This document shows, piece by piece, positions 3,580 to 58,670 of a stretch of DNA of 64,000 nucleotides. Source of the DNA: a virus. Under the pieces are notes generated by a model. That model ran no database searches, had not been told where the DNA came from, and saw nothing but the letters and a program-made list of their open reading frames with translations. The translations under genes were made by a program, and so were the position numbers. How positions within the stretch are numbered: position 1 is the first letter of the stretch; every line of letters begins with the position of its first letter. Where the stretch lies: IMG/VR virus record IMGVR_UViG_3300044994_000386, positions 1 to 64,000 of that record, one strand, 5' to 3'.

Positions 3580-4054
3580 TTAAATATCCTGCATCATTTC
3601 CCTAAATCTAAATTCATCTAAGGTTCCATCCATTCTCCAGATTGAATAATCTTCTTGATGATTTCCTGAATTATACCTAAATTATCTAAAATTAGTTGCG
3701 GCAGTGGATTATTAATACAGTAGAAGCCACCGCCCAATTTTCTTGGAGCTCCTAACAGTGAAGTTAATTGATTGTAATATCAGTAGAAATTGACACCGAC
3801 TTCCTCCGGAGCTCCCTCTAGTGAAGTTAGTTGATTATCTTGGCAATAGAAATTACCACTTACCATACCAAACTTAAGGGACAATTTCGATAATCCCCTA
3901 TTATATAAATCTACATCACCACTCACATCTATAGATCCGTCAGGATTTAGAGTATACTTTTTTATACCAGTTTTCCAGTTCAATCTCAGTTTCTATTTCC
4001 GGCAAATCTGATCGATTTTTTTTTAAATATCGAGTATTCTAGTATGTATTTCAT
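3580..4054 (-). pseudogene. Decayed LRR-family gene (3 repeats)
   Basis: A full family cassette can be followed from a leader ATG at 4052-4054 to the usual terminal TAA at 3580-3582, but it is broken at least three times. The leader is frameshifted within an A-run just after MKYILEYSIF. A conserved repeat Cys codon near 3780 is a TGA stop where paralogs have TGC. A 7-bp deletion in the C-terminal cap removes the reading frame of the QEDYSIW motif. A 67-residue open stretch (3780-3983) survives between the lesions but lacks the real start. It shows that copies are lost as well as gained. Confidence 0.75.
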
Positions 4055-4065
4055 TAGTGTATATA

Positions 4066-5088
4066 TTAAAATTCCGACATCATTTCCCGGAATCTAAATT
4101 CGTCTATGGTTCCATCCCTTCTCCAGATTGAATAATCTTCTTGATTCTTGATGATATATTTAATCACATATAGATTATCTAAAATTAATTTAGGTAGTGG
4201 ATTATTATAGCAGTAGAAATTACCACCCACTTCTGTTGGGGCACCACACAATGAGGTTAATTTATTATAAGTGCAAAAGAAATCACCACCGACTTCTCTA
4301 GGAGCTCCCTCTAATGAAGTTAATTTATTACGATTACAGTAGAAATCACCACCCACTTCTCTCGGAGCTCCCTGGAGTGAAGTTAATTTATTATTACTAC
4401 ATTCAAAGGTGGCACCTACTTTTTCAGGAGCTCCCTCCAGCGAAATTAATTGATTATCATTACAGAGGAAATCAGCACCCACTTCTCTCGGAGCTCCGTC
4501 CAGTGAAGTTAATTGATTATAATAACAGTAGAAATCACCACCCACTTCTCTCGGAGCTCCCTGGAGTGAAGTTAATTTATTATAACTACAGTAGAAATCA
4601 CCGGGGACTTCTCTCGGAGCACCCTCCAATGAAGTTAGTTGATTATTATCACAGTAAAAACTACCACCGACTTCTCTCGGAGCTCCCCGGAGGGAAGTTA
4701 ATTGATTATAAATACAGGAGAAATTATCACCCACTTCCCGAGGAGCTCCCTCCAGTGAAATTAATTGATTATTATAACAGTAGAAATTGGCACCGACTTC
4801 CCTCGGAGCTCCCCGGAGGGAAGTTAATTGGTTATTACCACAGTAGAAATTGGCACCCACTTCCATCGGACTTCCCTCCAGTGAAGTTAATTGATTATTA
4901 TAGCAATAAAAGCTGCCACTTACTATACCAAATCTAACCGGTAATTCTGATAGACTTTTGTAGGCTAAATCTACATCACCATCCACATCGATGGATCCAT
5001 CCCCATTTAGAGTATAGTTTTTTATACCATATTGCTGGCAAATCTGATCAATTTCGTTAAATTTAGAGGATTCTAGTAGGTATTTCAT
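4066..5088 (-). CDS. LRR-family protein, 12 repeats
   Basis: Predicted 340 aa (88 + 12 x 21). The leader is MKYLLESSKFNEIDQICQQY, and the acidic segment is GDGSIDVDGDVDLAYKSLSE, a sub-type shared with the gene at 6830-7915. Repeats contain an unusual FLCNDNQL and FFCTYNKL. The cap carries the variant LDNLYVIKYIIKNQEDYSIW. A long antisense open frame (4314-4937) overlies it; this is a by-product of the 63-bp periodicity rather than a gene. Function unknown. Confidence 0.87.
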   Translation of the reverse strand: MKYLLESSKFNEIDQICQQYGIKNYTLNGDGSIDVDGDVDLAYKSLSELPVRFGIVSGSFYCYNNQLTSLEGSPMEVGANFYCGNNQLTSLRGAPREVGANFYCYNNQLISLEGAPREVGDNFSCIYNQLTSLRGAPREVGGSFYCDNNQLTSLEGAPREVPGDFYCSYNKLTSLQGAPREVGGDFYCYYNQLTSLDGAPREVGADFLCNDNQLISLEGAPEKVGATFECSNNKLTSLQGAPREVGGDFYCNRNKLTSLEGAPREVGGDFFCTYNKLTSLCGAPTEVGGNFYCYNNPLPKLILDNLYVIKYIIKNQEDYSIWRRDGTIDEFRFREMMSEF

Positions 5089-5112
5089 TTAAGTATAATT
5101 TTAGAGTATATA

Positions 5113-5883
5113 TTAAATTTCCCGCATCATTTCCCTAAATCTAAACTTATCTAGTGTTCCATCCCTTCTCCAGATTGAATAATCTTCTTGATTTTTGATA
5201 ATTTCCTCAATTATACCTAAATTATATAAAATTAGTTGCGGCAGTGGATTATTACTACAGTAGAAGCCACCACCCAATTTTCTCGGAGCTCCCCTCAATG
5301 AAGTTAATTGATTACCATAGCAGTAGAAATTGGCACCGACTTTCTCCGGAGCTCCCCGGAGGGAGGTTAATCGATTATTACTACAGTAGAAATTGGCACC
5401 CACTTCTCTCGGAGCTCCATCTAATGAAGTTAGTTGATTATTATAGCAATAGAAACTACCACCAACTTCCTTCGGAGCTCCCTCTAATGAAGTTAGCCGA
5501 TTATATTCACAATAGAAGCTACCACCGACTTCTACCGGAGCTCCATCTAATGAAGTTAGTTGATTATTATAACAGTAGAAATCACCGGGTACTTCTCTCG
5601 GAGCCCCTTTTAATGAAGTTAATTGGTTATTATAACAGTGGAAATTGGCACCGACTTCACTCGGAGCTCCCCGGAGGGAAATTAATCGATTATTATGACA
5701 ATAAAAATCACCACTTACTATACCGAACTTAAGGGGTAATTCTGATAATCCCCTATTGATTAAATCCACATCACCATCCACATCAATAGATCCATCTCCA
5801 TTTAGAGTATAGTTTTCTATGTCATATTGCTGACAAATCCGATCAATTTGGTTAAATTTGGAGGATTCTAGTAAATATTTCAT
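5113..5883 (-). CDS. LRR-family protein, 8 repeats
   Basis: Predicted 256 aa (88 + 8 x 21). It shares a block of consecutive repeats with the gene at 6830-7915: NRLxSLRGAPSEVGANFHC, then NQLTSLKGAPREVPGDFYC, then NQLTSLDGAPVEVGGSFYC. The DNA there is nearly identical, a sign of gene conversion or recent duplication. Its 3' repeats instead match the short copies at 1257 and 3036. A late-type core (TTAATATATAC on the minus strand) precedes the start. No other domain is visible. Confidence 0.87.
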   Translation of the reverse strand: MKYLLESSKFNQIDRICQQYDIENYTLNGDGSIDVDGDVDLINRGLSELPLKFGIVSGDFYCHNNRLISLRGAPSEVGANFHCYNNQLTSLKGAPREVPGDFYCYNNQLTSLDGAPVEVGGSFYCEYNRLTSLEGAPKEVGGSFYCYNNQLTSLDGAPREVGANFYCSNNRLTSLRGAPEKVGANFYCYGNQLTSLRGAPRKLGGGFYCSNNPLPQLILYNLGIIEEIIKNQEDYSIWRRDGTLDKFRFREMMREI

Positions 5884-5908
5884 TTACATATTAAATTTAG
5901 AGTATATA

Positions 5909-6805
5909 TTAAATCTCCCGCATCATTTCCCAAAATCTAAACTCATCTAAGGTTCCATCCCTTCTCCAGATTGAATAATCTTCTTGATACTTGATGATAT
6001 GTTTAATAATATCTAGATTATCTAAAATTAGTTGGGGGAGTGGATTATTAAAACAGTAGAAATCACCACCGATTTCTCTCGGAGCTCCCTCCAGTGAAGT
6101 TAATTGATTATTACTACATACGAAAACACCACCGACTTGCATCGGACCTCCCTCTAATGAAGTTAATTGATTACTACTGCAGTGGAAATTAGCACCTACT
6201 TCTCTTGGGGCTCCTTCCAGTGAAGTTAATTGATTACCATAGCAGTAGAAATTGGCACCGACTTTCTCCGGAGCTCCCCGGAGGGAAGTTAATTGATTAT
6301 TATGGCAGTAGAAATTGGCACCGACTTCTCTCGGACCCCCTTCTAATGAAGTTAAATAATTATTATAGCAATAGAAACTACCACCAACTTCCTTCGGAGC
6401 TACCTCTAATGAAGTTAGCCGATTATATTCACAATAGAAGCTACCACTGACTTCTACCGGAGCTCCCTCTAATGAAGTTAGTTGATTATTATAACAATAG
6501 AAACTACCACCAACTTCCTTCGGAGCCCCTTTTAATGAAGTTAGTTTATTATTGTTGCAGTAGAAATCACCGCGGACTTCTCTCTGAGCTCCCCGGAGGG
6601 AAGTTAATCGATTATTATGACAATAAAAGCTGCCACTTACTATACCAAACTTAAGGGGTAATTCTGATAATCCCATATTGATTAAATCCACATCACCATC
6701 TACATCAATAGACCCATCTCCATTTAGAGTATATTTTTCTATACCATATTGCTGGCAAATCTGATCAATTTGATTAAATTTAGAGGATTCTAGTAGGTAT
6801 TTCAT
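5909..6805 (-). CDS. LRR-family protein, 10 repeats
   Basis: Predicted 298 aa (88 + 10 x 21). The repeats combine blocks seen in two neighbours: the NFYCYGNQL type from the 8-repeat gene, and the GGPMQVGGVFVCSNNQLTSL plus FYCFNNPL end shared with the gene at 6830-7915. The cap has DIIKHIIKYQEDYSIW. One repeat reads REVRGDFYC and another LTSLEVAPKEV, both departures from the GAP consensus. Function unknown. Confidence 0.87.
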   Translation of the reverse strand: MKYLLESSKFNQIDQICQQYGIEKYTLNGDGSIDVDGDVDLINMGLSELPLKFGIVSGSFYCHNNRLTSLRGAQREVRGDFYCNNNKLTSLKGAPKEVGGSFYCYNNQLTSLEGAPVEVSGSFYCEYNRLTSLEVAPKEVGGSFYCYNNYLTSLEGGPREVGANFYCHNNQLTSLRGAPEKVGANFYCYGNQLTSLEGAPREVGANFHCSSNQLTSLEGGPMQVGGVFVCSNNQLTSLEGAPREIGGDFYCFNNPLPQLILDNLDIIKHIIKYQEDYSIWRRDGTLDEFRFWEMMREI

Positions 6806-39341: not shown

Positions 39342-40448
39342 TTAAGCTTCGGTTTCTATTTCGACTTCACTATAAACAGTTTTGATCATTCTTTCAGATA
39401 CTAAATAAGGATCACAATTTGATGCTGGTCTTCTATCTTCAAAATAACCTCTACCTTCAACTAATGCTTGAGCTGGTATTCTAATCGAAGTATCACGTGT
39501 ACTATAACCAAAACTAAACTCATGTATACCAGATGTCTCATGAGCCCCAGTCAATCTCTTTTCATTGTGTAGACCATATACTTCAATATGGGCCATGTGA
39601 TTTTTTTCTAATTTACGCATTGTTTGTTTAATTATTTCAAATCCACCTTCTTGTCTCATTTCTTTACTTGAAAAATTAACGTGACAACCGGTTCCATTCC
39701 AATCCCCCTCTATTGGCTTTGGATGTAATGAAACATTAACGTTGTGTTTTTCAGCTACCCTTTGTAGAATATATCTTGCGACCCAAAGTTGATCAGAACC
39801 ATTTAGTGCGGTTACTGGACCAATTTGAAATTCCCATTGACCAAGCAAAACCTCGGCATTAATACCCGAAATATCTAAACCAATTTGTATACACATGTTC
39901 ATGTGCTCTTCAGCGATTTCTCTACCAACAACTGTATCCGCGCCAATGCCACAATAATAATCACCTTGTGGTCGAGGTTGACCAGATTTTCCTGACTTAA
40001 ATCCTAAAGGTAGACCAATTCCTTCACCAAAAGGCATTTCTGGCTTATGTGTTAAAGTATATTCCTGTTCCCAGCCAAACCAGGGTAGATCTGATTTATT
40101 ATTATAACCATTTGTATTCTCTTTTAATCCAAGTTTTTCTATAATTTCTTGTAATTTTCTACGGTGATTGGTTTTATGTGGATTGCCTTCTGGATCTAAT
40201 ACTTCACATAACACTAATTTATCCATTTTTCCTCTAAAAGGATCATTTGTTATAAAAACTGGTTTTAATAGACAGTCTGTGTTTTTATTTTTTCCAGATT
40301 TGGCTTGTTTGGTTGAACTACCATCAAACGACCAAATTGGATAATCTTCAGGATTTGTGGAATCAATCGATTCGGAAATTTTAGTTTTACTTCTTAATTG
40401 TTGTGGATTTGATCCATCTAACCAAATGTATTCTAGTTTAACTTTCAT
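39342..40448 (-). CDS. glnA: Glutamine synthetase, GSII (eukaryote-like) type
   Basis: Predicted 368 aa, the length of type II enzymes, which make glutamine from glutamate, ammonia and ATP. All signature segments are present: WSFDGSSTKQA near residue 40, PWFGWEQEYTL near 125, YYCGIGADTVVGREIAEEHM near 165, GQWEFQIGPV near 205, KPIEGDWNGTGCHVNFSS near 245, RLTGAHETSGIHEFSFG near 295 and RIPAQALVEGRGYFEDRRPA near 320. The gene appears intact. It is an auxiliary metabolic gene that could raise glutamine supply for nucleotide synthesis or counter host nitrogen signalling. The minus-strand upstream region contains TATAAATA, the exact T4 late element, 20-odd bases from the ATG. Confidence 0.93.
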   Translation of the reverse strand: MKVKLEYIWLDGSNPQQLRSKTKISESIDSTNPEDYPIWSFDGSSTKQAKSGKNKNTDCLLKPVFITNDPFRGKMDKLVLCEVLDPEGNPHKTNHRRKLQEIIEKLGLKENTNGYNNKSDLPWFGWEQEYTLTHKPEMPFGEGIGLPLGFKSGKSGQPRPQGDYYCGIGADTVVGREIAEEHMNMCIQIGLDISGINAEVLLGQWEFQIGPVTALNGSDQLWVARYILQRVAEKHNVNVSLHPKPIEGDWNGTGCHVNFSSKEMRQEGGFEIIKQTMRKLEKNHMAHIEVYGLHNEKRLTGAHETSGIHEFSFGYSTRDTSIRIPAQALVEGRGYFEDRRPASNCDPYLVSERMIKTVYSEVEIETEA

Positions 40449-52208: not shown

Positions 52209-53960
52209 ATGTTAATCATAAAATATAATGATTTCTTAGATATAAGATTAAATGAGAATGTTCAAGCAGCAAAGGCTTACTTGAGAGATTTAGCTTTGGC
52301 CAAAAAGAAAAATATAGATAAAAATGCAGAGCTAACTCCTGAAGAAGTACGTAGAGTAGAAAACAATCCAGATTTCTTAAAAATAAAAGAAATGCTGAAA
52401 GATAACCCAGGATACACCTATGCTTTCACAAGGTTTTTCTTTGATGAGGGAATTGATATTAATGAGTTGCAAAGAGTCTATAACAAGCTTAAAGAATTAA
52501 GACAATCTCTTAATTTATTATCAATGCCCATTGATAAGTTTGCTGATGTAAAACCATCGAATGAAGATCCACGTAAAGGTTTTGAAAGATTACTTGATGA
52601 TATTGCTAAAATTGAGATTTCTCGTACTGTTAAGAAATGGGTAAATCAATTACCAAGTGATTTAAAACGCGAATACCAAAATGCTTCAGTTGTTCAAAAA
52701 GAAAAAATTAAAGGTATTGCAATAGCATTTGATGAATTTGGTAAAGAACTAGACGGTACTAAAAATTGGGAAAAAAATAAAGAATTACAGGATTTATTTT
52801 TCTTAAAAGTTAAAAGATATAAAAATATATCCGACTTAATTATAGCTGCAAATAATTATATTAAGGCCGCAAATAATGCTCAAATTTCTAAATTCTTACA
52901 AGCTATTCAAAAAGTTAATGTTAAATATGGCCAGATGAATGGTGTTGAAATCATTTTTGATGAGAATAGAATTTTGATTATTGAGGTTAAATCTTTTTTT
53001 GCTAACAGAGAATTAAACTCTAATACAGCACATTGTATTGCTTCTTCTCATAGTCAGTGGGATAATTACGTCGGTGCTGATAATATATATAACAAGCAAT
53101 ATTATATTTACAATTTTAATTTACCACCATCTGATAACTATTCAGTTATTGGTATTACAATTGGACCTGGAAATAAAATCACTGCATGTCATGCTAAAGA
53201 TGATAGAAATATATCCGGTTCAATTAAAACTATCCTAAAACAATGGCAGAATAATTATAATATAAATGTTAATATATTAGAATTATTAGCTGCAATGACA
53301 CCAGACGAAATTGAAGCCAAAAAGAAAAGAATTGCTGCAAATAAAGAAATTGTTAAACCTGGTCTTTCTATTGATAAAATTAAACATTATCTTGAAGAAG
53401 GTGCTGATCCAAATGCTCAACAAGGTAAGCCTTTAAATAATGCGGTTAAAGAAGATGATTATGATAAGGCTAAACTTTTATTGGAAAAAGGTGCCTCACC
53501 AAATATTGGTAATTCAATTAAATATGCCAAAAACCTTGATATGATTAAGTTACTAGTTGACTATGGTTCTGAAATCAATAATGATGTTTTCCTCAATATT
53601 ATCAATGATTATGACGCAGTTGAGTATGTATTAAAAGCAGGAATTGATCCAAACTTTGAAAAAGGTCTTCCATTAAGAAATGCTGCTAAATTAGGTAGAA
53701 CTGATATTATGAAGCTTCTTATCAAATATGGTGCTAGAATTTCTGAAAGAAGATATATGGTTGTTAAATGGGCACTTGAATGGGCACAGATTGATGCGAT
53801 TAAACTATTATTTCAAGAACTTGAAAAATCAGGTAATAGTGTTGATAAAGAATTCTTAGAAAAATCACAATTCAAACATTGGGTACAAACTTCTGATAAA
53901 GTATCTGAAGATAAAATTAAAAAAGTTCTAGACTTCTTAGATCAATATGGAACTAATTAA
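52209..53960 (+). CDS. Ankyrin-repeat protein with unknown N-terminal domain
   Basis: Predicted 583 aa. The start MLIIKYNDFLDIRLNENVQA resembles the leader without the second-position Lys. Residues 90-370 form an unknown domain with NTAHCIASSHSQWDNYVG near 275 and VIGITIGPGNKITACHAKDD near 320. From about 390 on there are four to five ankyrin repeats (KHYLEEGADPNAQQGKPLNN, KLLLEKGASPN, KLLVDYGSEINN, EYVLKAGIDPNF, KLLIKYGARIS). Ankyrin repeats bind proteins. In this position the protein may be a packaged host-interaction factor. It is the last gene of its run, followed by a terminator. Confidence 0.7.
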   Translation: MLIIKYNDFLDIRLNENVQAAKAYLRDLALAKKKNIDKNAELTPEEVRRVENNPDFLKIKEMLKDNPGYTYAFTRFFFDEGIDINELQRVYNKLKELRQSLNLLSMPIDKFADVKPSNEDPRKGFERLLDDIAKIEISRTVKKWVNQLPSDLKREYQNASVVQKEKIKGIAIAFDEFGKELDGTKNWEKNKELQDLFFLKVKRYKNISDLIIAANNYIKAANNAQISKFLQAIQKVNVKYGQMNGVEIIFDENRILIIEVKSFFANRELNSNTAHCIASSHSQWDNYVGADNIYNKQYYIYNFNLPPSDNYSVIGITIGPGNKITACHAKDDRNISGSIKTILKQWQNNYNINVNILELLAAMTPDEIEAKKKRIAANKEIVKPGLSIDKIKHYLEEGADPNAQQGKPLNNAVKEDDYDKAKLLLEKGASPNIGNSIKYAKNLDMIKLLVDYGSEINNDVFLNIINDYDAVEYVLKAGIDPNFEKGLPLRNAAKLGRTDIMKLLIKYGARISERRYMVVKWALEWAQIDAIKLLFQELEKSGNSVDKEFLEKSQFKHWVQTSDKVSEDKIKKVLDFLDQYGTN

Positions 53961-53962
53961 AA

Positions 53963-53994
53963 TAAAAAACCCACTAAAATTAGTGGGTTTTTTT
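53963..53994. terminator. Bidirectional intrinsic terminator
   Basis: AAAACCCACTAA / TTAGTGGGTTTT with flanking A and T runs, between the convergent ankyrin and Ro60 genes. Confidence 0.8.
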
Positions 53995-55441
53995 ATAACT
54001 CAATTGAGTTGATTCGGTTGTATAAGGCTCGTTTGTCTTCCTCCATCATTTTCATGATGTCAAAGACTCTATCAGAGAAACCAGCTAAAGCAAATACTTT
54101 AGGCTCTGGGAATTGAAGAGTTCCATATCCTTGTAAGTCCCAAGAGTAAACATAAGGATTACAGTTGAACTTCTTCTTGTAGTCGGCAAACTGAGCAGTG
54201 GGTGTATTGTAGCCAATCCAGCCCTGCATATCTGATAAGATAATTACTCTATCATAAGATTTATTAGCCTTAATGAATATATCTTTGAAGTTAGTTCCAC
54301 CACCTGAAAAATTGAACTTACTACGGATAGTAAAAATAGAATCCATTGGATTATATTCAATGTAGCTAGCATAATTCGCAAAAGTCATAACATCACAGCT
54401 ATTAGCTTTAGCAATCATAGCACCAAATAGAGATGCAATTTCAGAAGGACGACCACTCATAGAACCAGATACGTCAATGACAACCAAAGTTTCGCCATTA
54501 AATCTTGGAACATTTACTACCGAAAAATCTAAAGCTTTATTGATGGCAACCAATACTTTACGAACTTCAGATGAAGAGCCAAGTTTTGAGACTTCTTCAT
54601 AAGCAGTCGAAAAACGGAAAGGTAGAACTTTAGATTTTCGAATCATTGATTCGTCAATTAAAAGAGTACAAGCTGCATCTACCACTGATGGTGCCTGAGA
54701 AATAATATTTCTCAAGTTTTTCAAAAGAGCAAAGTAACCAATCTTACGAGTTTGAATTAACTCAGACCATGCATCGGCTTTAAGTTGACTTAATTCTTCT
54801 TCGTTAGAAGCATTTTGACCAGCCTGAGAAAGCATAGCCTCCCAAGTATCAGTGTTTTTTAATTTACCGCTGATCAAGGCTTTCAAAGCTTCGGAATTTT
54901 TCTCGGTAGGAACCGGATGAACCAAGTTTACCACGTCAACTAATTTGAATTTTTTAGATTCACCTTTGTACTTAGCCAATTGATAAGTATCAAACTTATC
55001 GAAAGCTTTAGCAAATCCTTTTTTTAAAGAATTTGGAAATTTAGGTTTATTCTTATCGGTTTTGTAGTTAACATAGTAAGACATAATTTCAGTCATATCA
55101 TCAACACGACTAACAACCTTATTATAAAAATTTTTAGACCATTCTTGACCAGAGATATATAATGCTAATTCAGCGGCAAGTACATGAGTAATACTTCTCA
55201 TTCCGAATTCATCACGAGCAAAAATAGCAGCTTTAGCCGCAAATTTAGGATCAACTTTAGATAAGAGAGCCTTTAAATCGTCAATTGATTGGTCAGCCGA
55301 TCGGTAAAACTGGTTGTTAACAAATGATGTCAACAACAAAGAAACAAGAGACAGTTCATCAGTTTTGCGATAGGCTTCACCACCAGCAAGATTAATTGTT
55401 TTTGTTTTTGGTTTTGATTCTGTTTTGTTAAACTTTGACAT
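53993..55441 (-). CDS. rsr: Ro60-like TROVE + VWA RNA-binding protein
   Basis: Predicted 482 aa from ATG 55439-55441; a TTG-started extension to 55537 runs into an upstream terminator and is rejected. The N-terminal two-thirds is a TROVE domain (FVNNQFYRSADQSIDDLKAL, DPKFAAKAAIFARDEFGMRS, GYFALLKNLRNIISQAPSVV). The C-terminal third is a VWA domain with the MIDAS motif DVSGSMSGRP near residue 325 and FSGGGTNFKD. Ro60 proteins form a ring that binds non-coding Y RNAs and misfolded RNAs; in Deinococcus the complex with PNPase degrades structured RNA. The upstream non-coding region may hold its RNA partner. Confidence 0.87.
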   Translation of the reverse strand: MSKFNKTESKPKTKTINLAGGEAYRKTDELSLVSLLLTSFVNNQFYRSADQSIDDLKALLSKVDPKFAAKAAIFARDEFGMRSITHVLAAELALYISGQEWSKNFYNKVVSRVDDMTEIMSYYVNYKTDKNKPKFPNSLKKGFAKAFDKFDTYQLAKYKGESKKFKLVDVVNLVHPVPTEKNSEALKALISGKLKNTDTWEAMLSQAGQNASNEEELSQLKADAWSELIQTRKIGYFALLKNLRNIISQAPSVVDAACTLLIDESMIRKSKVLPFRFSTAYEEVSKLGSSSEVRKVLVAINKALDFSVVNVPRFNGETLVVIDVSGSMSGRPSEIASLFGAMIAKANSCDVMTFANYASYIEYNPMDSIFTIRSKFNFSGGGTNFKDIFIKANKSYDRVIILSDMQGWIGYNTPTAQFADYKKKFNCNPYVYSWDLQGYGTLQFPEPKVFALAGFSDRVFDIMKMMEEDKRALYNRINSIEL

Positions 55442-55534
55442 ACTATATAAATTTATTTTGTTTTCTATAGACAAGGACTCGTAGAAATCATTATTGGCTT
55501 TTGAATCATGCGAGTGTATAAAACTCAATCTATA

Positions 55535-55576
55535 CAAAAAAAAAATCAGAGTTACTTAAACTAAATAACTCTGATT
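55535..55576 (-). terminator. Intrinsic terminator upstream of the Ro60 gene
   Basis: An 11-bp perfect inverted repeat, AATCAGAGTTA / TAACTCTGATT (55544-55554 and 55566-55576), is followed on the minus strand by a run of about ten T. It lies about 95 bp before the Ro60 ATG, so it must end a separate transcript arriving from 55577-56111. This supports a short non-coding transcript there. Confidence 0.65.
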
Positions 55577-55975
55577 ACAAATATATATATAAAATTAGAC
55601 AAATAGGAAAAGCTAGTTGAGCTTTTTTTTATATTTAACTTTATCTAAATAAAAGTTAAAAAATAGTTGATTGATTTTTAGGTCTATCATCAAAACCCCA
55701 ATCTTTGGTTCATTTTGGTCAGAACTGCTATTCGTAGCAAACGTCTATTTTTTTTTAATCTTCCTCTCCAAAGTATTAAGTTTTTTTTTGGATATAGAAG
55801 CATCTAAAACCATAGATAGTTTTTAGAACTTTCATGATAGTTTTGAATTTTTCTTATCGAAGTAACTCATCCTATCACCATATTTGTCTAATAATTTTAA
55901 CATGTAATCAGAGTAAGTTTTAGAAAAGTATTTTTCTATGCACGCGAAGTAACTTTTCTAATCACTACTGATTTT
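55577..55975 (-). ncRNA. Candidate structured non-coding RNA(s), possibly a Y-RNA-like partner of Ro60
   Basis: The 570 bp between nrdA and the Ro60 gene has no plausible coding frame but several stems. One is a 10-bp stem (55920-55929 with 55952-55961) nested inside AATCAG / CTGATT (55906-55911 with 55968-55973). Another is TGCTA-TTCG-TAGCA at 55726-55739. A third is a TCTAAAA / TTTTAGA pair around 55811-55835. A minus-strand terminator closes the region. In Deinococcus the Y RNA gene lies upstream of rsr, the same arrangement. Boundaries and number of transcripts are guesses; stems could also form by chance in AT-rich DNA. Confidence 0.35.
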
Positions 55976-56111
55976 ATTGTTATACATAAGGTTTTTAAAA
56001 AGTTTACAAAAATAATAATTTTTTTTAATAATTTGTACATATATATATGAACATATAAAATTTAATTTTTTTTAAAGTGGATTTTTTATAGTCCATTTTC
56101 TATATACTTTA

Positions 56112-58670
56112 TTAAGATCCACATGCTAAACATTCTCCAGGTTCCGAATCTAAGCTACAAGCAATTTCCGACATTTGATCTTCTACTGACTTAGGCTTTT
56201 CTTCTTTTTGTACAGTAAACTTAACAGCATCAGCAGCACTCTTAGTTCTGAAATAATACATACCGGTTTTTAGATTGGTTCTTTTGTCGCGATAAAATTT
56301 TGGATTACCGGATTTATCATAAACTACTTCAATGGTCGGATCTTTAGGAATGACAACTTGGCCTTTTTCATCAGTGATTAGATTTCTACGTCCCCAACCA
56401 TAAAAATGCATTGATGTTAGCTTTCCGAAGTTAGCATTATCCATAAATATATTCATTGATTGTGTTTGGTCAATAAAAGCACCTCTATCAGCCGCCATAT
56501 CAATAACATCTTTTTGTTTAATTTCCCAAACTGTCTTGAATATTTCTTTAAGATTAACTGGAATTTCAGGTACATTTTGAACAGAACCGTTAGAAGCAAT
56601 GATTTTATTCCTAACCGAATCTGACCAGATTCCAAGTTTAACTAATTCTTTCACAAGATATTTGTTTACATTTATAAACTCACCTGAAAGTACACGTCTT
56701 ACATAAAGGTTTGAAGTTTGTGCTTCACAGGATGCTTCATTTCCTAAAATAGAAGCGGTTGATGCAGTTGGCATAATACATGTTGTTAAAGAGTTTCTAA
56801 CGCCAAATTTTTTAATATCTTCTCTTAATTTTTTCCAATCCCATCTATCTGTTGGTGTGACACCCCATAAATCAAATTGGAATTTACCTTTAGAAATAGG
56901 GGATCCCTCATATGAAGCATAAGGACCCTTTTCTTTAGCTAAGTCACAAGAAGCCCTCATCGCTGAATAATAGATAGTTTCAAATATCTCTTTATTCAAC
57001 TTTTTAGCTTCATCAGAATCATAAGGTAAATTTAATAAGAAGAAAACATCGGCTAATCCTTGAACACCTAAACCAATTGGTCTGTGTAAGAAGTTTGAGA
57101 ATTTAGCAGAAGGCGATGGATAATAATTAACATCGATTACATTATTCAAGTTAATTGTTGCCGAGTAAGCCACTTCATATAATTTCTTGAAGTTATAAGT
57201 TTTGTTTTTATTAACAAATTTAGACAAAGAAATTGATGCTAAGTTACATACAGCAGTTTCATTTACATATTCTTTACCATAAAATTCACCTAAGCCTAAA
57301 GATTCAAGTAAAGATTTATTCTGAAGAACTTTACTTTGAAATTTAGTAACACCAGTTGCTTCTACAATTTCAGCACAAAGATTTGAACTACGTATAATAC
57401 CAATATTTGATTGATTTGATTTTTCATTGATAGCATCTTTATATAAGATATATGGTGTACCGGTCTCAACTTGTGATTCAAGAATTTTGTTCCATAATTC
57501 ACGAGCTTTAATAGTCTTTTTGCCACGACCTTCAGACTCATATTTTAAGTAAAGTTTTCTAAACTCTTGACCATAAGTCTCGGTCAAACCTGTACATTCG
57601 TGTGGACACATCAAAGTCCAATCTTCGTCTAAGTCAACTCTTTCCATGAAAAGATCATTCATCCAAATAGCTAAGAAAAGGTCACGAGCACGTAATTCCT
57701 CTTTACCTTGATTTTTTCTTAAATCTAAAAATTCGAAGATGTCGGAGTGCCAAGGTTCAATATAAATAGCAATTGATCCTTTACGTTTTCCACCACCTTG
57801 GTCTACCGCACGAGCCGTCTCGTTGTAGATTTTCAAAAATGGAATAATACCATTGGAAGTCCCATTTGTACCAGCAATGTAAGATCCTTTGGCTCTAACT
57901 TTAGAGAATGAAATACCAATACCACCAGCATTTTTTGAAATCTGTGCTGACTCTTTTAAGGTGTTAAAGATTCCTTCAATTGAATCTTGTTCAACATCTA
58001 ATAAGAAACAAGATGATAATTGTGGCCTGATAGTGCCTGAGTTGAATAAAGTAGGTGTCGCGTGAGTATAATATCCTTCCGATAGTAAATTATAAGTTTC
58101 AATTACCTTAGGAATATTTTCGCCCCATATCTGAATTGCGGTTCTCATGTACATATATTGAGGTCTCTCTGCGACTTTACCATTGATTTTCAATAAGTAA
58201 GATTTTTCCAAAACTTTATATCCAAAATACTCAAAGTTATGATCTCTCGAGTGGACTATTGCTGAATCTAACTCATCAGCATGTTTTTGTACTATTTTGT
58301 AAAAACTTTCTGAAATTATGGGTGAGTGTTTACCAGTTTTCGGATTCACATAATTATATAAATCTCCCATTGTTTCGGAGAAACTTTTTTTAGTTTCTTT
58401 GTGTAGACTAGTTATTGCTAATCTAGATGCTAAAATTGCATAATCTGGATGTTTTGTTGTTAGTGATGCCGCAGTCTCCATTGCAAGTTTGTCTAGAACC
58501 CTTGTTTCAACATCAGGAGTAATTCCTTCGATTACTTTTTGTGCAACTTCAAAAGGAACGATCCATTTTGTGTCCAAACCATATGTCTGTTGATTAATGC
58601 GTTCTAAGATTTTATCTAACATCAAGGGTTCTTTTTTACCATTTCGTTTTGTTACTTTTATCATACTCAT
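56112..58670 (-). CDS. nrdA: Ribonucleoside-diphosphate reductase large subunit (class Ia)
   Basis: Predicted 852 aa; T4 NrdA is 754 aa and bacterial forms are 760-850 aa. It makes deoxynucleotides from ribonucleotides for phage DNA synthesis. The ATP-cone is at residues 3-95 (KVTKRNGKKEPLMLDKILER). Active-site cysteines lie in QLSSCFLLDVEQDSIEG, SSNLCAEIVE and ETAVCNLASISLSKF, and the tail ECLACGS has the C-x-x-C redox pair. About 25 residues (TKFQSKVLQNKSLLESLGLG) are inserted between the second and third cysteine regions, which is too short for an intein. nrdB is not in the window. No close late core precedes it. Confidence 0.95.
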   Translation of the reverse strand: MSMIKVTKRNGKKEPLMLDKILERINQQTYGLDTKWIVPFEVAQKVIEGITPDVETRVLDKLAMETAASLTTKHPDYAILASRLAITSLHKETKKSFSETMGDLYNYVNPKTGKHSPIISESFYKIVQKHADELDSAIVHSRDHNFEYFGYKVLEKSYLLKINGKVAERPQYMYMRTAIQIWGENIPKVIETYNLLSEGYYTHATPTLFNSGTIRPQLSSCFLLDVEQDSIEGIFNTLKESAQISKNAGGIGISFSKVRAKGSYIAGTNGTSNGIIPFLKIYNETARAVDQGGGKRKGSIAIYIEPWHSDIFEFLDLRKNQGKEELRARDLFLAIWMNDLFMERVDLDEDWTLMCPHECTGLTETYGQEFRKLYLKYESEGRGKKTIKARELWNKILESQVETGTPYILYKDAINEKSNQSNIGIIRSSNLCAEIVEATGVTKFQSKVLQNKSLLESLGLGEFYGKEYVNETAVCNLASISLSKFVNKNKTYNFKKLYEVAYSATINLNNVIDVNYYPSPSAKFSNFLHRPIGLGVQGLADVFFLLNLPYDSDEAKKLNKEIFETIYYSAMRASCDLAKEKGPYASYEGSPISKGKFQFDLWGVTPTDRWDWKKLREDIKKFGVRNSLTTCIMPTASTASILGNEASCEAQTSNLYVRRVLSGEFINVNKYLVKELVKLGIWSDSVRNKIIASNGSVQNVPEIPVNLKEIFKTVWEIKQKDVIDMAADRGAFIDQTQSMNIFMDNANFGKLTSMHFYGWGRRNLITDEKGQVVIPKDPTIEVVYDKSGNPKFYRDKRTNLKTGMYYFRTKSAADAVKFTVQKEEKPKSVEDQMSEIACSLDSEPGECLACGS

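What the first reader, a model, noticed from the sequence alone, without database searches (positions are those of the whole stretch)
53993..56111. Phage-encoded Ro60 with a structured, separately terminated non-coding region upstream
Ro60 (TROVE + VWA with intact MIDAS) is rare in phages. The 570 bp before it has no credible gene, but nested stems, a TTCG-loop hairpin and a minus-strand terminator about 95 bp before the Ro60 ATG. That placement implies a short RNA transcribed from this region, as the Y RNA is beside rsr in Deinococcus. A phage Ro60-Y RNA particle could control RNA turnover during infection.
Basis: partly seen in the sequence, partly recalled or inferred. Interest (0 to 1): 0.75.

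Follow-up and report, generated by a model that had tools for sequence, protein, structure and literature searches.

The report
Phage Ro60 with paired Y RNAs
A huge-phage relative carries a gene for the RNA-binding protein Ro60 and, directly upstream in a separately terminated unit, two of its partner 'Y RNAs', one with a large domain unlike any described Y RNA, which suggests that phages build and perhaps self-regulate their own RNA-handling particle.

Summary
The window is a fragment of a huge-phage relative (nearest phage-record Ro60: 634-kb LR745206, 71%). Ro60 (53993-55441, minus) is intact. Upstream on the same strand lie two Ro60-binding modules sharing one consensus: basal stem, U-AGYRA, second stem, UUACUUCG, effector, U-rich 3' strand, stem. 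Module 1 (55906-55973) is a short Y RNA: a covariance model built only from other clades finds it at E=6e-10, the only significant hit in 64 kb, and also hits beside Ro60 in Deinococcus, Hymenobacter, crAss-like and Arthrobacter phages. Stems show strong compensatory change. Module 2 (55597-55889) encloses ~240 nt that is not a tRNA mimic, unlike described 90-150-nt bacterial Y RNAs. A terminator (55576-55536) closes the unit. Corrections: phage Ro60 is not that rare (93 phage records); 'TTCG' belongs to UUACUUCG, not a tetraloop. New: in all 24 clade genomes the terminator's 5' arm can pair with module 1's 3' strand, and the window changed all four strands in concert, suggesting Ro60-controlled attenuation (unproven). 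Transcription and binding are untested. New variant of a known kind.

The parts
53993..55441 (-). Ro60/Rsr protein, 482 aa, TROVE ring plus vWA with intact MIDAS; H175 in the HPxP motif aligns with the HPKT of D. radiodurans Rsr
55906..55973 (-). Module 1: short Y RNA, AAUCAG-U-AGUGA-UUAGAAAAG-UUACUUCG-loop-CUUUUCUAA-AACUUACU-CUGAUU
   Evidence: CM hit E=5.7e-10 with a model built without this clade; covariation in relatives; shuffle test
55597..55889 (-). Module 2: Ro60-binding module (AGACAAAUA-U-GGUGA-UAGGAUGAG-UUACUUCG ... CUCAACUAG-CUUUUCC-UAUUUGUCU) closing a ~240-nt effector domain that is not tRNA-like
   Evidence: six of nine closing pairs show a change on both sides in five relatives; no Rfam match for the window region or for the subtype A domain; no tRNA
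55536..55576 (-). Intrinsic terminator ending the Y RNA unit; arms conserved in the clade and complementary to module 1's 3' strand
55903..55914 (-). Module 1 3' strand ACUCUGAUUACA, able to pair (12 bp) with terminator 5' arm 55568-55579 as a candidate antiterminator
55980..56005 (-). Promoter-like element AAACTTTTT...TATAA just upstream of module 1, similar sequence in many relatives; weak (0.65 expected by chance in the window)
56112..58670 (-). Upstream neighbour: ribonucleotide reductase large subunit (not part of the unit)

Best explanation
The 670 nt between the ribonucleotide reductase gene and Ro60 encode a Y RNA transcription unit. Shown by sequence: two Ro60-binding modules in tandem (a short hairpin Y RNA, then one enclosing a ~240-nt effector domain), followed by an intrinsic terminator and then the Ro60 gene, all on one strand. 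Inferred: the unit is transcribed from just upstream of module 1, and phage Ro60 binds the bulged basal stems to form one or two phage Ro ribonucleoproteins. By analogy with D. radiodurans (Rsr tethered by Y RNA to PNPase), the RNA gates Ro60's central hole and its effector docks a partner. In this clade the tRNA mimic of other Y RNAs has been replaced by a different structured domain, so the partner may differ. Ro60 mRNA is probably made by read-through of the Y RNA terminator, because most relatives leave only 20-49 nt between terminator and ATG.
For: Same-strand module arrays in the 700 nt upstream of Ro60: 83 motif hits on the Ro60 strand against 0 on the other. 83 of 101 sites have complementary arms beyond shuffles. 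Model R1, from 13 modules of other clades (95.9% paired, 14/15 pairs with changes on both sides), finds module 1 at E=5.7e-10 with the next hit at 0.08, and hits 23 of 23 other clade loci searched. R1 also hits beside Ro60 in Deinococcus plasmids next to Rfam YrlA matches, and in three bacterial genomes only at the Ro60 locus. A 57%-identical Ro60 has a YrlA-type RNA in the same place. Module 1 covariation in 22 clade members: 98.3% paired. Terminator-to-ATG distances.
Against: No transcript, binding or infection data exist. R1 does not detect module 2 as a whole; module 2 rests on motif, arms and covariation in five sequences. Subtypes A, B and C of its large domain were handled as separate alignments, and only modest internal covariation was seen in subtype A. 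The promoter is a weak guess. No PNPase, RtcB or RNA ligase was seen among the 25 window proteins scanned, so the partner would have to be host-made or encoded outside the fragment.
Confidence: 0.87

Rival explanations
1. Ro60-controlled attenuator (an extension of the best explanation). Module 1's 3' strand can pair either with its own 5' strand (Ro60-bound form) or with the terminator's 5' arm (antiterminator). Free Ro60 would lock module 1, let the terminator form and shut off its own mRNA.
For: 7-12 bp complementarity in all 24 clade genomes compared. The UC at the end of module 1's UCUGGUC is kept although unpaired in module 1, and terminator arms GACCAGA/UCUGGUC are kept although a terminator needs no fixed sequence. 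In the window all four strands changed together. Antiterminator duplex -17.1 versus basal stem -4.0 kcal/mol. Only 20-49 nt between terminator and ATG in 21 of 24 genomes. A locus with module 1 and terminator but no Ro60 lost the final C of UCUGGUC (L118; one case).
Against: The terminator hairpin (-15.8) is local and nearly as stable as the antiterminator, so switching would have to be kinetic. Few independent compensations. No such complementarity was noticed by eye in other clades. The window itself has 94 nt before the ATG, room for a promoter.
Confidence: 0.35
2. Purely cis-acting leader: Ro60 binds these structures in its own mRNA leader to regulate translation or transcription, and no stable Y RNA accumulates.
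For: Modules lie immediately upstream of Ro60 on the same strand.
Against: A strong terminator separates them from the gene. The same modules occur far from Ro60 among tRNA-like sequences in huge phages. A module-terminator unit exists without Ro60 next to it. Other members carry tRNA mimics like YrlA.
Confidence: 0.08
3. The RoRNP serves tRNA or RNA repair or decoy defence (for example competing with host anticodon nucleases) rather than RNA decay.
For: Phage Y RNAs often sit in tRNA arrays and mimic tRNAs; in Salmonella the YrlA tRNA-like domain was proposed as a nuclease decoy (PMC7790460); jumbo-phage TROVE proteins were linked to RNA repair (PMC7824862).
Against: The window's own two RNAs carry no tRNA-like domain, and no repair genes were seen in the window proteins scanned.
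Confidence: 0.15
4. The region is an ordinary AT-rich spacer whose stems are chance and whose terminator simply ends the ribonucleotide reductase operon.
For: Very AT-rich sequence; stems are easy to find in such DNA.
Against: Independent covariance-model hit, compensatory changes and conservation across many phages and bacteria.
Confidence: 0.01

Closest known systems
YrlA / bacterial Y RNAs (Rfam RF02553; D. radiodurans, Salmonella, M. smegmatis)
   Same: Next to Ro60/rsr; basal stem with conserved internal loop; relatives of this clade carry the permuted tRNA mimic and match RF02553; R1 hits beside Ro60 in Deinococcus
   Different: Window RNAs have no tRNA-like domain; one is a bare ~70-nt module, the other ~290 nt, outside the 90-150 nt given for YrlA (PMC8394870); no Rfam match
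RYPER (Rsr-Y RNA-PNPase) of D. radiodurans
   Same: Ro60 and Y RNA genes adjacent; same domain plan of the protein
   Different: No evidence for PNPase binding here; the tRNA-like part said to bind PNPase (PMC8394870) is missing
Thermus phage phiLo Ro60 (PDB 9l5y, 9kop) and other phage TROVE proteins
   Same: Phage-encoded Ro60 fold
   Different: R1 found nothing convincing beside the phiLo gene
Listeria phage CKA15 Rsr homologue with abundant ncRNAs nearby (PMC12282133)
   Same: Rsr plus putative Y RNAs proposed in a lytic phage
   Different: There the Y RNA identity is a suggestion from expression; here it rests on covariation and a cross-clade model, without expression data
Ribosomal-protein leader attenuators
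   Same: Candidate logic: a protein-bound stem decides terminator formation
   Different: Would use a Y RNA as the sensor; untested

Membership tests
Ro60/Rsr | TROVE domain | tested here: met
   Pfam PF05731 E=1.1e-19
Ro60/Rsr | vWA domain with MIDAS (DxSxS, T, D) | tested here: met
   Invariant D323, S325, S327, T383, D404 in 28 relatives; Pfam vWA_Ro60 E=5e-4, below its cut-off
Ro60/Rsr | Overall fold of solved Ro60 | tested here: met
   Foldseek E 1e-10 to 1e-16 to phiLo, D. radiodurans and vertebrate Ro60; model pLDDT 82
Ro60/Rsr | Y RNA-binding histidine (mouse H187; H187S loses Y RNA binding, PMC11277228) | tested here: inconclusive
   H175 in HPxP, nearly invariant in relatives, aligns with HPKT of D. 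radiodurans Rsr and HPRP of phiLo; equivalence to mouse H187 is from memory, as the vertebrate alignment did not cover it
Bacterial Y RNA | Encoded beside Ro60 | tested here: met
Bacterial Y RNA | Basal stem with internal loop shared with RNAs beside Ro60 in other bacteria, with covariation | tested here: met
Bacterial Y RNA | Binds Ro60 | not testable with these tools
   needs pull-down or EMSA
YrlA (RF02553) | tRNA-like domain (T and D arms) | tested here: not met
   No tRNA and no YrlA match in the window; met in relative L004
YrlA (RF02553) | Score above the Rfam gathering cut-off | tested here: not met
RYPER | Y RNA tethers PNPase | not testable with these tools
   needs co-purification
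Attenuator | Mutually exclusive pairing conserved with compensation | tested here: inconclusive
   Complementarity in 24 of 24 genomes, one clear concerted change

The most novel reading that the evidence does not exclude
A phage Y RNA doubles as the sensor of an attenuator: Ro60 bound to module 1 decides whether transcription stops at the Y RNA terminator or reads into the Ro60 gene, and a second Y RNA carries a large new effector domain that replaces the tRNA mimic and docks a partner not yet known.
Probability: 0.33. Interest if true: 0.8.

Novelty: new variant of a known kind. Interest (0 to 1): 0.62.

Why it matters
It gives a sequence-level definition of a Ro60-binding module that works across phages and bacteria and finds Y RNAs that tRNA and Rfam searches miss. 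It indicates that huge phages maintain Ro ribonucleoproteins with several effector types: short, permuted tRNA mimic, canonical-order tRNA-like, and a large unknown domain. That makes 'what does Ro60 do for a phage' testable, and offers a candidate self-regulating Ro60 circuit.

Tried and rejected
Rfam at gathering and E-value thresholds on the window: no Y RNA match, mostly terminator look-alikes. Large domain as a known RNA: no Rfam match for subtype A, and blastn against phages finds only LR745206. The first motif pattern over viral contigs gave 28 stretches, probably near chance level for that pattern, so Ro60-anchored loci were used instead. CTATAAAAAATCC as a phage promoter repeated in the window: not enriched. 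Sigma-70 scan: no excess. An automatic arm finder with a greedy anchor misplaced module 1 arms and was replaced. MAFFT of 18 short modules misaligned several, so 13 were kept. Attempts to read Chen 2014 and the Sim and Wolin reviews failed (not held), so novelty against them is judged from papers citing them.

Full report
WHAT WAS CHECKED. The window is part of an 86-kb IMG/VR virus record. Its relatives are huge phages: the nearest Ro60 among phage records is in LR745206 (634,780 bp, 71% identity), and a stretch of LR756502 (642,428 bp) is the only near DNA match of 40-64 kb. A T4-like terminase, a tail-sheath-like protein, ribonucleotide reductase, a DnaB-like helicase and ClpP in the window fit a large tailed phage. 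The Ro60 gene runs from ATG 55441 to 53993 on the minus strand. TROVE matches at 1.1e-19, the MIDAS residues are invariant in 28 relatives, and the predicted structure matches phage phiLo Ro60, D. radiodurans Rsr and vertebrate Ro60. Phage Ro60 is uncommon but not exceptional: 93 of 50,697 phage records and 52 IMG/VR loci with relatives. One phage Ro60 has a solved structure (9l5y).

THE NON-CODING REGION. Upstream sequences of the relatives share a motif, refined to: basal stem (4-9 bp, free sequence), U, [AG]G[UC][GA]A, second stem (8-9 bp), [AU]UACUUC[GA], effector or loop, second-stem complement, a 6-8 nt strand close to AUUUUCU, basal-stem complement. In the 700 nt before Ro60 the motif occurs 83 times on the gene's strand and never on the other. 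With the 5' side fixed, the best downstream complement beats dinucleotide shuffles (at most 2% as good) in 83 of 101 sites. For the window's two copies 0/200 and 2/200 shuffles did as well.

INDEPENDENT TEST. A covariance model, R1, was built from 13 short modules of other phage clades and bacteria. On that alignment 95.9% of cells pair and 14 of 15 pairs have changes on both sides. Searched over the 64-kb window it hits 55905-55974 minus at E=5.7e-10; the next hit is 0.08. It hits all 23 other window-clade loci searched, two crAss-like phages and Arthrobacter phage Atuin. In whole bacterial genomes (about 20 Mb in four genomes) it hits only beside Ro60, in three of the four. It also hits just upstream of Ro60 on two Deinococcus plasmids, next to Rfam YrlA matches. 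Within the window's clade, module 1 is 98.3% paired over 22 sequences, with 9 of 13 pairs changed on both sides.

MODULE 2. The second copy (55889-55597) closes about 240 nt. Its basal stem in the window (AGACAAAUA/UAUUUGUCU) differs from that of its nearest relatives (UUGAGGACA with UGUCCCUCA or similar) at most positions while staying paired: six of nine pairs have a change on both sides, and 0/500 shuffles reach the overall count. The enclosed domain occurs in three subtypes in the clade, which were aligned separately. The window belongs to subtype B. No tRNA and no Rfam family fits the window region or the subtype A domain. Elsewhere the same module encloses a permuted tRNA mimic (T arm then D arm) as in YrlA: L004 hits RF02553 at 1.8e-5, below the gathering score. 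The window's second RNA is therefore a Y RNA by its Ro60-binding part, with a different effector. Bacterial Y RNAs are described as 90-150 nt with a tRNA-like domain; the basal stem binds Rsr and the effector binds PNPase (PMC8394870).

TRANSCRIPTION UNIT. The terminator (55576-55544 and U tract) ends the unit. In 21 of 24 clade genomes only 20-49 nt separate it from the Ro60 ATG, too little for a usual promoter and leader, so Ro60 mRNA is probably made by read-through. The window is one of the three exceptions with 94 nt, so a promoter there is not excluded. A promoter-like sequence (55980-56005) lies just before module 1 but is weak on its own.

CANDIDATE ATTENUATOR. In all 24 genomes compared the terminator's 5' arm (GACCAGA in most) is complementary to module 1's 3' strand (UCUGGUC in 21), over 7 to 12 bp. 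The last UC of that strand is not paired within module 1 in most members, yet it is kept. The terminator arms are kept although their loops vary. In the window all four strands have changed together, to AAUCAG / UCUGAUUAC / UAAUCAGAG / CUCUGAUU. This is what mutually exclusive pairing would produce. The duplex (-17.1 kcal/mol) outcompetes the basal stem (-4.0) but not clearly the terminator hairpin (-15.8), so any switch would be kinetic or Ro60-dependent. One concerted change is suggestive, not proof.

MECHANISM AND STATUS. Shown: the genes, the module structure, covariation, the terminator. Inferred from Ro60 biology: Ro60 binds the modules, the RNA gates its central hole, and the effector docks a partner; in D. 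radiodurans the partner is PNPase (PMC7790460, PMC4726728). Unknown: whether the RNAs are made, what the large domain binds, and what the particle does in infection. Phage Y RNAs have been suggested before (mycobacteriophages, as cited in PMC12282133; Listeria phage CKA15, PMC12282133), so this is a new variant of a known kind. The primary bacterial Y RNA papers were not held, so some of the short or tRNA-bearing forms may already be described there.

Noticed in passing
L087 (OR575929, phage csAssE-Sib) 3480-3920: Annotated tRNA-Tyr (3666-3738) and tRNA-Lys (3811-3884) lie inside Ro60-binding modules; they look like Y RNAs carrying a canonical-order tRNA-like domain rather than ordinary tRNAs.
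   Followed up: partly
LR745206 at 342958 and 369032; L111 and L112 (huge-phage contigs): Further Y RNA modules far from Ro60, next to tRNA-like sequences: one short, one with a permuted tRNA mimic, two enclosing a canonical-order tRNA-like domain with an anticodon arm.
   Followed up: partly
L118 around 7617: Module 1 directly followed by the terminator, with module 2 missing and no Ro60 next to it: a stand-alone Y RNA-like unit.
   Followed up: partly
L137 (Streptomyces phage BRock) 2350-2930: Four Y RNA-like modules, two with YrlA-like T/D arms, between a tRNA array and the Ro60 gene.
   Followed up: partly
window 39342-40448 (-): Glutamine synthetase-like gene (N and C domains) in the phage.
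   Followed up: no
window 52209-53960 (+): 583-aa ankyrin-repeat protein convergent with Ro60, apparently sharing a bidirectional terminator at 53964-53993.
   Followed up: no
L136 (Allomeiothermus plasmid) 4426-6234: An RNB-domain ribonuclease gene lies directly downstream of Ro60, a possible alternative nuclease partner of a Ro60 RNP.
   Followed up: no
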